Source: Pleurotus ostreatus/Saccharomyces cerevisiae fusant (taxonomy: Eukaryota > Opisthokonta). From it: a stretch of DNA of 64,000 nucleotides. The translations under genes were made by a program, and so were the position numbers. Of this stretch, positions 84-10,619 are shown one piece after another (the first letter of the stretch is position 1; every line of letters begins with the position of its first letter). The DNA lies in contig JAMQCK010000073.1 in NCBI GenBank assembly GCA_024196135.1, forward strand, positions 1-64,000, written 5' to 3'. The notes under the pieces were generated by a model. The model did no database searches, was not told where the DNA came from, and saw only the letters and a program-made list of their open reading frames with translations.

Positions 84-1350
84 TCAGACCAAATCGCGAA
101 GATGAGCAGAAGCCGAGCTCTCGAGGTTGTTCGCCGAGACGCGCTCCGTTGAGAAGATCATAGTGCGCACGAGCTGGCCCTGCGCAGTACCGAAGCCGGT
201 ACGGAGGACGACCCCGAGGCAACCACCGTCTGGCGTTTTGATCGGGGATGGGATCTGGACGGAGGGCGATGCCTGGAGGACCTTGGTGCCGCTGAACAAA
301 ACCTCGTTCTTGTGCTGGCCATCGACATCGAGGGGCTCGTGAGCCTCCAGGAGTTGAATAGACTCCTTCAATAGCGGGGTCGACTCGCCCGAGAGCATGG
401 CCTCGTTGACGATGCAGGTGCCGTTCACGAGGAGAATGTCCGCGGGGACCGTTGTCTCGTGCTGTCCACGCACAATGCTGACGACGTCGCCGGGGAGCAG
501 CTTGTCCGTCTGCATCTCCACCCACTTCCCGTCGCGGAACACCTGGATCGGGAACGGCTGCACGCTCATGGTGCGGAACTCGGTGAGCGTGCGCACGCGC
601 TGCCAAACGACCGTGCACTCGAACACGACGAGCATGAAGAGTGTGAAGAGGGAGTAGTACCAGTACTCGTCGAGGCACCACAGCGCGACGCAGAAGATCT
701 GGAAGACGAAGAAGGGCGCGGTGGCGTGCTCGACGAAGAGCTCGCTGAACGTGGGGATCGGGATGTCAAAGTCGTTGCCGCCGTACAGCGTCATGAGGCC
801 CGGCACGTCCTGCTCCTTCAGACCCTTGGGCGTCAGGAAGGTGGAGAGGGGCGGGTGCGCGCTGCTCGGGTACGGGAGCCGGCCGAAGGTGAGGGGGGAC
901 GTGGAGAGGGCTGTGTACGTGTCGCGCTGGTAGTTGAACGTGTAGGTGCCGTTCTTCTTCTCCAGGGGGACGATGTCGCCGTGGCCTCGGTGTTGCTTGG
1001 GGATGATCCGGATGCAGTCCGCCTCCTCCACCGAGCGCGCCCGCCGTGTGGTTATCCACGCTCTTGCTGCCGCGCTCCACTTCGTGAAGAGAAAACTAAG
1101 CGCATGTGTCGTCCCGAGGGCGACGCAGTAGATGAACGTCCACTCTTCGCTGACGATCCACTCGTCGTACTTGACGTAGTATGCATACGCGAGGAGGGGG
1201 TAGAGGGTGAGGAAGGGGACGCCGTATATGTGGTTGTACCAGGGGACCGCGATGTGCAGGCTCGCGGCCTCGATTTCCGGCGACTCTATCGCCACGGACG
1301 CCCTAAGCAGTGTCAGAAAACGTTTTTCGCTGCACATCGAGGACTTACAT
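84..1350 (-). CDS. spf1: P5A-type (Spf1-like) ER ATPase, N-terminal part, frame broken near the window edge
   Basis: P5A ATPases of the ER extract mis-inserted transmembrane helices and maintain ER ion homeostasis. The visible part has the N-terminal membrane hairpin, a cytosolic A-domain with the family motifs PADILLVNG and LSGESTPL, and the conserved FSTERVSANN stretch before the next membrane span. The proposed start is ATG split by a 46-nt intron (AT at 1350-1349, intron 1348-1303, G at 1302), giving MASVAIESPEI; an unspliced ATG at 1337 is the alternative. Only about 400 of the family's roughly 1200 residues are present. After NNLE (about position 121) the reading frame runs into a stop at 84, while a hydrophobic LLLIFAI stretch typical of the next membrane helix continues in the +1 frame, so this copy looks truncated or frameshifted. 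It faces the site-2 protease gene across an inverted-repeat element. Confidence 0.85.
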
Positions 1351-1411
1351 CTTCGAAAAGTACGAAGCCAAGGTGCGCGCGTCTTCCTGTGACTGACGCC
1401 GCCGTCCTGCC

Positions 1412-1682
1412 GTCGGCGGGAAGGACCAATTTCGGATTTTGCGTTTCGCTGTTCTGACGCGTGAGGTCGGCAGTTCGAATCAGGGCCGATGGGAGGTACT
1501 TATACATTCTTTGCCTCTGCTCGTTGCTTGAGGACCGTCTTTGCGCGTAGATTCGGTGATGTGTTAGCAGATCTATGTTTCCGCGCTGGGAGAGACCCAA
1601 AAGCCATGAAACCGGGCTCGCAAGAAACACCGGCACTTGCCGGGCCCCGGCATACGCCGACATTCGTTTCTCACGGTTGAAC
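1412..1682 (-). repeat. Left arm of 271-bp inverted repeat
   Basis: Reverse complement of 2122-2392 with two mismatches. It begins after the 5' exon of the Spf1-like gene. Confidence 0.9.
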
Positions 1683-2121
1683 CTCACCGCTTGCTCTCCA
1701 TTCTCCCTAAGACACGTCTTCCAGCAGCAGACAAACCGCGGAATATAAGAATGAAACCCTGTATAAGACTATGTACGACAGCCTCGAGGGGATATCATTC
1801 AAGAAAACACCTTCAAAGGTATGAAGTCGGGGATGAGAACGTCAAGGCCCCTGAAATGGAACATGGTCTGCCGGTATACTACTGCGCTACTCCAGCTACA
1901 GATAAGCATGGAAACTGGATTGATCTTGAATAAAGAGGTAGCAGCGTTGCACTTGGCAGGGTCAAGCCCGATTATGAAGATCAGAAGAAAAGTATGAAAC
2001 CGAGCAGATGAGCTGCCATATAGGGTCCGCCTACTCAGCAGGTAGTAGATAGGTTATGTTCGTACTACAAAAGGGGACGTGGGACCGCCTTTTTGGCCGC
2101 GGGCGAGGCAAAGGAACGGAA

Positions 2122-2392
2122 GTTCAACCGTGAGAAACGAATGTCGGCGTATGCCGAGGCCCGGCAAGTGCCGGTGTTTCTTGCGAGCCCGGTTTCATGG
2201 CTTTTGGGTCTCTCCCAGCGCGGAAACATAGATCTGCTAACACATCACCGAATCTACGCGCAAAGACGGTCCTCAAGCAACGAGCAGATGCAAAGAATGT
2301 ATAAGTACCTCCCATCGGCCCTGATTCGAACTGCCGACCTCACGCGTCAGAACAGCGAAACGCAAAATCCGAAATTGGTCCTTCCCGCCGAC
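2122..2392 (+). repeat. Right arm of 271-bp inverted repeat
   Basis: Near-identical inverted copy of 1412-1682. It ends 42 bp before the start codon of the site-2 protease. Confidence 0.9.
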
Positions 2393-2433
2393 TTTGGTTT
2401 TGACTGCCACCGCGCCTACCGCTGGTCGGCACG

Positions 2434-4728
2434 ATGCCATTTGGATCTCTTTTCCTTGGGACCTCAGCCTTTTGGGCCTTGGTACACACAGCAAACAAGA
2501 TCTATCTCTCCCGCAGCGACGGCCCAACTCTGCCGGCTTTCGTTCCCCGACGACGAAGAGCAGGAAGAACAGGAAACGCATATGTTACTGTCGACCGACT
2601 TCACCTCCGTATACAGACGACACACCTAAATGATGTGCATGATCTCTTTGCGCAATGGTCTTTGAAGAATCCTCGACTGCGACGAGCTCTGGCTGGTTTC
2701 TACGACTTGGGTACAGCCGCTTGTTGTTTGGGCGCGTTGACTGCGCTAGGTCTGCTTCTATGGACGACATGGGGCTTGCTTGTCGCTACCTTTGCTTCGC
2801 CTACTAGTACTGGTGCTTCCCCCCCTACTCCTTCAATAGCGAAGCGCGACTATATACCTCCCGAGCCGCCCAGCTCGACAGCTTCCAGCTTCGGCGTCCG
2901 ACCTCTTGTTCGTAAAACGTACGATTTTGTCATGATTAATGTCTGACTTGCAAACCCAAGATCCCAGGCGTCACTGTACCCATGAGTCACCTGCCTCTCA
3001 TGCTCCTCGCCGTTCTCTTCGGCCAAATTGTGCACGAACTGGGACATGCCGCCGGCTCTGCACTGTGCGTTTTTCACCTCCTATCAAGGTCCATCATAAT
3101 TTAGATCTCATTGTCACGTACATATTTGTAGCGAGCAAATTCACATAACCTCCGCCGGCTTATCCATTCTCGTCCTCTTTCCCTCCGCCTTCGTCGCCCT
3201 CCCATCCACCGCTATCGACGCGCTTGGCCCCCTCGCCCGCCTACGTATAATCGCAGGCGGACCCTACCACAATCTGTGCTACTTTGTCGCCCTTTGGACC
3301 GCGCGGTGGATGGGACTATTAGCCTTTCTTGCGCCGATTGTTGCAACTTTAGCGGGGTACGAGGATATCAGCAGGCAAGGAAGGGTGGTTGTGGACGTTG
3401 ATGCGGTGAGAATTCTTTTTCTTCTGGCATTGTGGGTTTTTCCCTGGCATCAGTCTCAGATGTCGTGGGTTTCCTGGACTTCAGTGCTCACGTGGGAACC
3501 CAGGGCTCGAACTTGCACGCCTACATCCCTCGAGGGGCCATCCTGACACGCCTCAACGACGTCAAGCTAGACCACGCGGCAGCCTGGGATGAGTTTTTCG
3601 CAGGACCCTACTCGGGCAAAAGTACTGCAGGCTGGTGTGCTCCGCGTAGCCAAGTTGCAGGTGAGCCATGTCCGCCCTCTTTCTTCCAAAGCACAGGATT
3701 CAGTCTCCTTCTTCAGCCGCTCCCACCGACTGTTGCGACCCCACTCTTTCCGGCGTGCCATCGACCCTCACCTGCTTTGTCGAGGGCAGCCCTACTACAC
3801 AAGCATGTCTGGACCCAGTCTCCCTCCTCGGCAATCCGCGCAGCCCTCGATGCGACACGACAACGCCATGTGCGGAAGGCGTGACGTGCGTCAGGCCCAG
3901 CGACGGCGCTCACCTTGTGCGAATCTGGTTGGAGACAGAGGATGGTGCTAGGCAAGAAGCGGAAGGTGCAGGCCGATGGATGAAGACGGCGGTGGGTGCA
4001 GGCGAAGGGTTGAAGATGGCGGACGGTACAGGGGAAGGAATGATGTCAGCGGAGGGCGCAGGCGAAGAAATTGTCATCTGGAACGGCGACCGGGAGGAGG
4101 TGCGGGAGGCGGGTGAGTGCGAGGATTGCCAAGCTATCTGTTGCGAAACTCCGCTTAAGATCGCCGTCTCGTAGTGCAAACCTCCACCTGGCGTCCCCGA
4201 TTTTTCTTCTTGCCTCTCGGTCTGCCGAGTGCGATGGAGGCCTTTTTGCAGTACGTCTTTTATTTTCTTATCATATTTTCACCTTACATTACCTCATTTC
4301 CTTCTTACCTCCACCCCCCATCCCAACACTACCCTCAATCCCACCGCAATACTCACACCTCGAGCAGATACCTCGAACTCGCCACCCTCTCCCTCTTCCT
4401 CTTCAACCTCCTGCCCCTGCCAATGCTCGACGGGGAGCAGTTCCTGCGCACGATGTTGGATCTGGCGCTGGGTGATGCGTCACCGTACGATGAGTACGAC
4501 GTGGGGGCGCTGGAGGATGCGGAAGCGGGGATGGGCGCGGGACGACATTCGGGTATGGGGACGAGAGGAACTACGAGGGCGGGCAGGAGAGGACTGTCGC
4601 GATGGCTGCCTCGAAACACGCAAGACGCGGAGAGGTGGAAAGAGCGGGTGTGCAAGGGCGCGACGATGGTCACGACCGGGTCGCTGGGGACGTGTGTGGT
4701 GCTAGGGTTGGTGCAGAGCGTGCGGTGA
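2434..4728 (+). CDS. Site-2 protease (S2P, M50 intramembrane metalloprotease)
   Basis: S2P cleaves membrane-tethered regulators such as SREBP-type factors inside the Golgi/ER membrane. Proposed CDS: join(2434..2907,2961..3064,3132..3405,3504..3660,3717..4112,4175..4250,4368..4728), 613 residues. The zinc motif HELGH lies at residues 183-187 in a hydrophobic segment. The third zinc ligand is in FNLLPLPMLDG (Asp about 515), again hydrophobic. Between them are a PDZ-like loop (IPRGAILTRLND) and a cysteine-rich luminal region (TDCC, then three further Cys before VRP). The start is the first ATG of an ORF that opens with a hydrophobic helix, as in fungal homologues. The third intron has alternative in-frame acceptors between 3453 and 3503. 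Residues 419-458 are an unusual run of four 10-residue Gly-rich repeats. It converges on the hydrolase at 4939. Confidence 0.9.
3962..4081 (+). repeat. 30-bp coding tandem repeat inside S2P
   Basis: Four consecutive 30-bp units (3962, 3992, 4022, 4052) each encode ten residues of the form x-Gly-(Ala/Thr)-Gly-(Glu/Arg)-x-x-x-x-x, for example VGAGEGLKMA and DGTGEGMMSA. The last unit runs into conserved S2P sequence (IVIWNGDREEV). The copies are diverged, so this is an older in-frame expansion. Confidence 0.75.

Positions 4729-7708: not shown

Positions 7709-10619
<2,911 letters not shown>

What the first reader, a model, noticed from the sequence alone, without database searches (positions are those of the whole stretch)
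1412..2392. A 99%-identical 271-bp inverted repeat is the divergent promoter of spf1 and S2P
Two arms differing at 2 of 271 positions flank an asymmetric 439-bp spacer with TATA-like tracts, and leave only 62 and 42 bp to the two start codons. Recombination between such arms would invert the spacer and swap promoter halves between an ER ATPase and an intramembrane protease, both ER-homeostasis genes. It could equally be a recent foldback-type insertion that now supplies promoter sequence. Near identity means recent origin or ongoing gene conversion.
Basis: partly seen in the sequence, partly recalled or inferred. Interest (0 to 1): 0.75.

Follow-up and report, generated by a model that had tools for sequence, protein, structure and literature searches.

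The report
Old palindromic transposon between two genes
The near-perfect inverted repeat between two fungal ER genes is most likely one old copy of a small hairpin-shaped jumping element whose two halves keep correcting each other, and it now fills the space where both genes' promoters should lie.

Summary
The inverted repeat is real: 271 bp with 2 differences (274 with 3), leaving 61 and 41 bp to the split start codon of spf1 (P5A-ATPase) and the inferred start of S2P. It is not unique: the 40-Mb basidiomycete assembly holds at least ten places with its arm or end, four with both arms (window included). The three other complete copies end TACGG...CCGTA (one of six ends TACAG) and carry perfect 7-bp target-site duplications: a non-autonomous DNA transposon with long terminal inverted repeats. 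Arms within a copy differ at 2-3 positions, yet the window's arms differ from those of other copies at 26-29% of positions, and the spacers at 43%. A tree pairs arms by copy, and grouping them by side is rejected, so arms evolve in concert, most simply by arm-to-arm gene conversion. The window copy looks old (no duplication left, end bases decayed, no close spacer kin found), so near identity does not show recent origin. The ends resemble fungal IS3EU transposons, but those usually have 6-bp duplications; membership is not claimed. Promoter use is plausible by position but untested. Spacer inversion is untested, and would leave the identical proximal arms unchanged.

The parts
1412..1685 (+). 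Left arm (terminal inverted repeat) of the element
2119..2392 (-). Right arm (terminal inverted repeat), 3 of 274 differences from the left
1686..2118 (+). Spacer, alignable end to end with spacers of the copies on C943, C409 and C847 but about 43% different
1408..1411 (+). Decayed left end bases (TGCC where kin have TACG), if no indel occurred
   Evidence: inference
2393..2396 (-). Decayed right end bases (CAAA read from the end, where kin have TACG), if no indel occurred
   Evidence: inference
1401..1407 (.). Where the left target-site duplication would lie; matches 2397-2403 at 2 of 7, so none is recognisable
2397..2403 (.). Where the right target-site duplication would lie; not recognisable
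1500..1504 (-). TATAA in the left arm facing spf1, 149 bp before the start codon
   Evidence: a five-base match only
2300..2304 (+). TATAA in the right arm facing S2P, 129 bp before the start codon; mirror image of the left one
   Evidence: a five-base match only
84..1350 (-). 5' part of spf1 (P5A-type ATPase); start codon split AT|G by an inferred intron; the gene continues past the window edge
2434..3404 (+). First three inferred exons of an S2P-like M50 protease (2434-2907, 2961-3064, 3132-3404)

Best explanation
The 981-bp unit is an old copy of a non-autonomous DNA transposon of about 1 kb with long terminal inverted repeats (about 291 bp in its relatives, 274 bp here) and a spacer of about 433 bp. 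Shown: it belongs to a dispersed family in this genome; three other complete copies have 7-bp target-site duplications; within each of the four complete copies the two arms are nearly identical although arms of different copies differ by 4 to 29%. Inferred: the arms of each copy are repeatedly homogenised by gene conversion between them (hairpin-guided or break-repair copying of one arm onto the other), and for the window copy this went on in place, because its insertion scars have decayed. Inferred, weaker: it entered or came to fill a short divergent intergenic region and now holds much of the promoter sequence of spf1 and S2P, so that both genes share one nearly identical proximal 274 bp.
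For: Dispersed family: places. Alignment of the four complete copies, spacer included. Perfect 7-bp duplications CCCCGCG, ATGCGCA, AGCGGGG in 3 of 3 other complete copies. Arm core, inner boundary columns left out: within a copy, window 3 substitutions, C943 2, C409 one of 289 plus one indel, C847 one of 291 plus one indel; between copies, window against C943, C409, C847, C1156 70-76 of 265-267 and against C807 65-67 of 236; C943 against C409 and C847 30-31 of 289-291; C409 against C847 13-15 of 289-290. Tree of ten arms: window pair 100/100, C847 100/98, C409 98/96, C943 68/67; grouping arms by side of the spacer is rejected (p-AU 7.5e-52 with all four copies; 8e-7 with three against the rest). 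Of 9 within-copy differences, 8 are private to one arm, as fresh uncorrected mutations would be. The window spacer finds only itself in the genome at E up to 1.
Against: No transposase is tied to these ends: no autonomous copy was found. C943's arm pair has weak support (68/67), and at one column (207) one C943 arm agrees with C807 rather than with its partner. Conversion during transposition rather than in place cannot be excluded, above all for the copies with intact duplications. One assembly is the only source, and two contigs end inside copies; read-level mistakes could favour identical arms, although each complete copy keeps 2-3 arm differences. No expression data.
Confidence: 0.75

Rival explanations
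1. The window copy is a recent insertion of a diverged, otherwise unsampled subfamily; its arms are alike only because it is young.
For: Arms 99% identical; the assembly is fragmented and may miss kin (1277 contigs).
Against: No recognisable duplication: 2 of 7 at the expected place, and no abutting match of 1 to 15 bases whether or not the four decayed bases are dropped; end bases differ between the two sides; no close copy found. It also does not explain why C943, C409 and C847 show the same within-copy identity with 4-11% between them.
Confidence: 0.15
2. Arm identity is kept by selection for a hairpin RNA (a small-RNA source) rather than by DNA conversion.
For: Both arms in one transcript could form a long duplex (inference).
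Against: Of the 7 within-copy substitutions, 3 are A/C-type changes that no G-U pair tolerates (hand count; small number, and no test of compensatory change was run). Rfam found nothing at E up to 1 in window 1300-2500 and one chance-level match (gut-2, E 3.8) in the C943 arm.
Confidence: 0.05
3. A dedicated invertible promoter switch: recombination between the arms flips the spacer to alter expression of spf1 and S2P.
For: Geometry; long identical arms; TIR-TIR inversions are documented for ISWpi1 in Wolbachia, 2 of 22 loci (PMC3004938, passages).
Against: The same structure exists at three other loci; identical arms mean the proximal 274 bp is unchanged by a flip. A dedicated recombinase was not searched for.
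Confidence: 0.05
4. Assembly artefact (mirrored or collapsed copy).
For: Contigs C1156 and C1229 end inside copies of this element.
Against: Arms keep differences; the spacer is asymmetric; four separate loci show the same anatomy.
Confidence: 0.03

Closest known systems
IS3EU (IS3EU/GingerRoot) DNA transposons, fungal members
   Same: Ends TACGG..CCGTA fit the TAYGG..CCRTA ends with TIRs over 30 bp reported for rust-fungus IS3EU (PMC12730594, passages); complete IS3EU families always have TA..TA ends (PMC10045372, passages). This genome also has a 7-kb element on C40 with TA..TA ends, a 6-bp duplication CAGGTA, 376-bp arms with 4 differences, and rva_4 integrase-core matches inside.
   Different: Duplications are 7 bp here (3 of 3), 6 bp in the rust IS3EU and usually 6 bp in IS3EU at large; no transposase found in the element; its arms share no significant similarity with the C40 arms (best E 1.5).
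Galileo (P superfamily, Drosophila)
   Same: Long TIRs, usually 7-bp duplications, and the authors' proposal that long TIRs attract recombination and conversion (PMC3573991 and PMC4168063, passages).
   Different: Fungal host; a P-type transposase was not searched for; reported Galileo duplications favour GTANTAC, which the three here do not fit.
Foldback-type / long-TIR MITE elements
   Same: Two long arms around a short middle with no Pfam family in five frames tested.
   Different: A structural label, not a lineage; one search lists no tandem repeats inside these arms, whereas Galileo-type foldback TIRs are internally repetitive (start of the abstract of PMC3573991).
Arm-to-arm conversion and inversion in ISWpi1 (Wolbachia)
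   Same: Recombination between the two TIRs of one copy with conversion of one TIR (PMC3004938, passages).
   Different: 23-bp TIRs in a bacterium; there two orientations were seen, here none could be compared.

Membership tests
IS3EU | TA..TA ends (rust fungi: TAYGG..CCRTA) | tested here: met
   TACGG at 5 of 6 ends of the three other complete copies, TACAG at the sixth; window ends decayed
IS3EU | TIRs longer than 30 bp (rust fungi) | tested here: met
   about 291 bp (274 in the window)
IS3EU | 6-bp target-site duplication | tested here: not met
   7 bp in 3 of 3 complete copies with a recognisable duplication; the window copy has none
IS3EU | IS3-like DDE transposase in the family | tested here: inconclusive
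   No Pfam family in five frames of the window element. rva_4 matches on 3 contigs of the genome, none bounded by these ends in the stretches read
Galileo / P superfamily | 7-bp (sometimes 8-bp) target-site duplication | tested here: met
   3 of 3
Galileo / P superfamily | P-type transposase | not tested
   No search with a P transposase model was made
Kyakuja (7-bp duplications in Agaricomycotina) | CA..TG ends without TIRs | tested here: not met
   Ends TACGG..CCGTA with long TIRs; feature from PMC12730594 passages
Foldback-type long-TIR element | Long inverted arms around a short spacer, dispersed copies with duplications | tested here: met

The most novel reading that the evidence does not exclude
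The window copy is a domesticated transposon that acts as a self-correcting mirror promoter: in-place gene conversion keeps the proximal 274 bp of two divergent ER-homeostasis genes nearly identical, so that a regulatory change arising in front of one gene is copied in front of the other and the pair stays co-regulated. The outward-facing TATAA in both window arms, absent from all 8 arms of other copies compared, would be one such shared change.
Probability: 0.15. Interest if true: 0.75.

Novelty: new member of a known kind. Interest (0 to 1): 0.4.

Why it matters
Near identity of inverted arms is easily read as a sign of youth. This family shows the opposite: copies whose middles differ by up to 43% each keep arms that are about 99% alike, so arm identity does not date the insertion. 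It is a compact natural case for measuring arm-to-arm conversion in a fungus. If the promoter reading holds, it is also a way by which a transposon could keep two neighbouring genes under one evolving control sequence.

Tried and rejected
tRNA or SINE origin: the outer arm holds a box-B-like string (GGTTCGAATC in the kin; box B recalled), but ARAGORN found no tRNA in the window, Rfam gave no tRNA match, and BLAST of one outer arm against 30 of the 63 scored tRNA places (all that were fetched; 921 candidates in the first look) gave only 15-25-bp matches at E 0.25 or worse. Most of these lie where the tRNA's 3' half should be. Kept as a lead only.

Autonomous partner: the 93-bp end query and the 32-base end pattern with up to 3 mismatches found only the places listed, among them a bare end on C832. 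In the 16 kb of C832 read, no opposite end was seen, and the one other exact copy of its flanking 7-mer has no end beside it. The stretches read around the rva_4 matches on C606, C517 and C40 gave only chance-like matches to the first dozen bases of the ends.

Coding role: five frames of the window element, some of them running into its flanks, gave no Pfam family at E up to 0.1.

Context of other copies: six open frames near the copies on L009, L011 and L013 gave no Pfam family; of two near C802 (L045) one gave a PCI domain. So I cannot say whether other copies sit in promoters.

Hairpin of one arm alone: not more stable than shuffles (z -0.29).

Literature searches bearing on earlier description: (several lists were cut at 20 or 30 titles). 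No listed title describes this family; of the papers cited I saw passages only, and most subscription papers are not held. I also saw passages on Styx, an IS3EU-related element of Zymoseptoria with 6-bp duplications (PMC10853768).

Full report
Observation. The repeat is as described: arms 1412-1685 and 2119-2392, 274 nt, 433 nt apart. Homology ends abruptly on both sides. The neighbours are spf1, a P5A-type ATPase, whose start codon is split AT|G by an inferred intron and whose N-terminus MASVAIESPEI resembles that of homologues, and an S2P-like protease with HELGH, for which the Pfam M50 match is below that family's cut-off. Between element and start codons lie 61 and 41 bp. The four named proteins among the ten best matches of spf1 come from basidiomycetes (names; that these genera are basidiomycetes is recalled).

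It is a family. The whole element finds copies elsewhere in the 40.05-Mb, 1277-contig assembly. Queries with a second copy and with a 93-bp end, and a pattern search, give in all ten places: four with both arms (window C980; C943:10268-11293; C409:10468-11492; C847:8345-9371, to within two bases) and six partial. C1156 and C1229 are cut by contig ends; C807 stops matching after about 247 bp of arm; C1230 stops at another repeat; C802 has one diverged arm; C832 has only a bare end. Counts of repeats are lower bounds by the tool's own statement.

It is a DNA transposon. The three other complete copies begin TACGG and end CCGTA, except one end reading CTGTA, and are flanked by CCCCGCG, ATGCGCA and AGCGGGG on both sides: 7-bp duplications in 3 of 3. 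The four complete copies align end to end, spacer included, with the arm-spacer boundary at about the same place. Five frames of the window element gave no Pfam family; frames inside the other copies were not tested.

The arms evolve in concert. In the arm core the two arms of one copy differ by 3 substitutions (window), 2 (C943), or one substitution plus one indel (C409, C847). Between copies they differ at 13-15 of 289-290 (C409 against C847), 30-31 of 289-291 (C943 against these two), 70-76 of 265-267 (window against C943, C409, C847, C1156) and 65-67 of 236 (window against C807). Other pairs with C1156 or C807 lie between 5 and 12%. Had the arms evolved separately since the copies split, arms within a copy should differ about as much as arms between copies. 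A tree of ten arms pairs them by copy (100/100, 100/98, 98/96; C943 only 68/67), and trees that group arms by side are rejected (p-AU 7.5e-52 and 8e-7). Eight of the nine within-copy differences are private to one arm; in the ninth one C943 arm agrees with C807.

The window copy looks old. Its spacer differs from the other three at 181-182 of 421-423 positions, against 23 of 431 between C409 and C847 and 94-98 of 430-433 between C943 and these, and finds no other match in the genome at E up to 1, a sensitivity that also misses the three diverged spacers. The 7 bases on either side where a duplication should lie agree at 2 of 7; if no indel is assumed, 5 of the 8 outermost end bases differ from TACG. 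Yet the arms beside them differ at 3 of 274. Decay outside and identity inside is what conversion bounded by the unlike flanks would leave. This last step is inference: a young insertion of an unsampled subfamily without a duplication is not excluded.

Function. Position makes the element the likely site of much of both promoters. The window arms each carry an outward TATAA, mirror images, at 1504 and 2300, 149 and 129 bp before the start codons; none of the 8 arms of other copies has one. But a TATAA is expected by chance in roughly one such arm in five or six (my estimate, no call), and the spacer holds two more on the + strand (1744, 1762). An inversion between the arms would flip the spacer only; both genes would keep the same proximal 274 bp. 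Conversion therefore predicts locked co-regulation better than switching. None of this was tested.

Class. The ends fit those given for rust-fungus IS3EU elements, TAYGG..CCRTA with TIRs over 30 bp and 6-bp duplications (PMC12730594, passages); IS3EU at large ends TA..TA with usually 6-bp duplications (PMC10045372, passages). The 7-bp duplications here do not meet that. The genome holds rva_4 integrase-core matches on three contigs; I chose that Pfam family from memory as likely for fungal IS3EU. Those on C40 (three pieces, one with stop codons in its path) lie inside a 7,029-bp element with TA..TA ends, a 6-bp duplication and 376-bp arms with 4 differences, so long near-identical arms also occur in an element with a transposase-like core. 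Eight other frames there gave no family of note. Its arms do not match the present family. So the family works like an IS3EU- or Galileo-type long-TIR non-autonomous element, without being filed in either.

Limits. One assembly, no reads, no related fungal genomes, no expression data.

Noticed in passing
L065 458-7486 (G000:C40): A 7,029-bp element with 376-bp inverted arms (4 differences), TA..TA ends, 6-bp duplication CAGGTA and rva_4 integrase-core matches inside: an IS3EU-like candidate. Its outer 43 bp recurs on C955, C1112 and C480.
   Followed up: partly
L009 2969-3060 and the matching outer arms; window 1412-1487: The outer arm contains a string like a Pol III box B / tRNA T-arm (GGTTCGAATC in kin, CAGTTCGAATC in the window) that is conserved across copies; no Rfam tRNA match.
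   Followed up: partly
L014 and L047 (G000:C1230), joined positions 901-1161, 3281-3540, 8523-8780: A different repeat of about 258 bp in three copies on one contig, one of them abutting the truncated copy of the present family.
   Followed up: no
window 3959-4067: Three overlapping 49-nt matches at 30-bp spacing, 76-78% alike, i.e. a degenerate 30-bp tandem repeat in what is probably S2P coding sequence.
   Followed up: no
L049 3047-3078 (G000:C832): A 32-bp end very like this family's end with no other arm sequence, perhaps the end of a different element moved by the same transposase.
   Followed up: partly
G000:C1156 end, C1229 start: Contigs end inside copies of this element, so copy number in the assembly is probably an undercount.
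   Followed up: no
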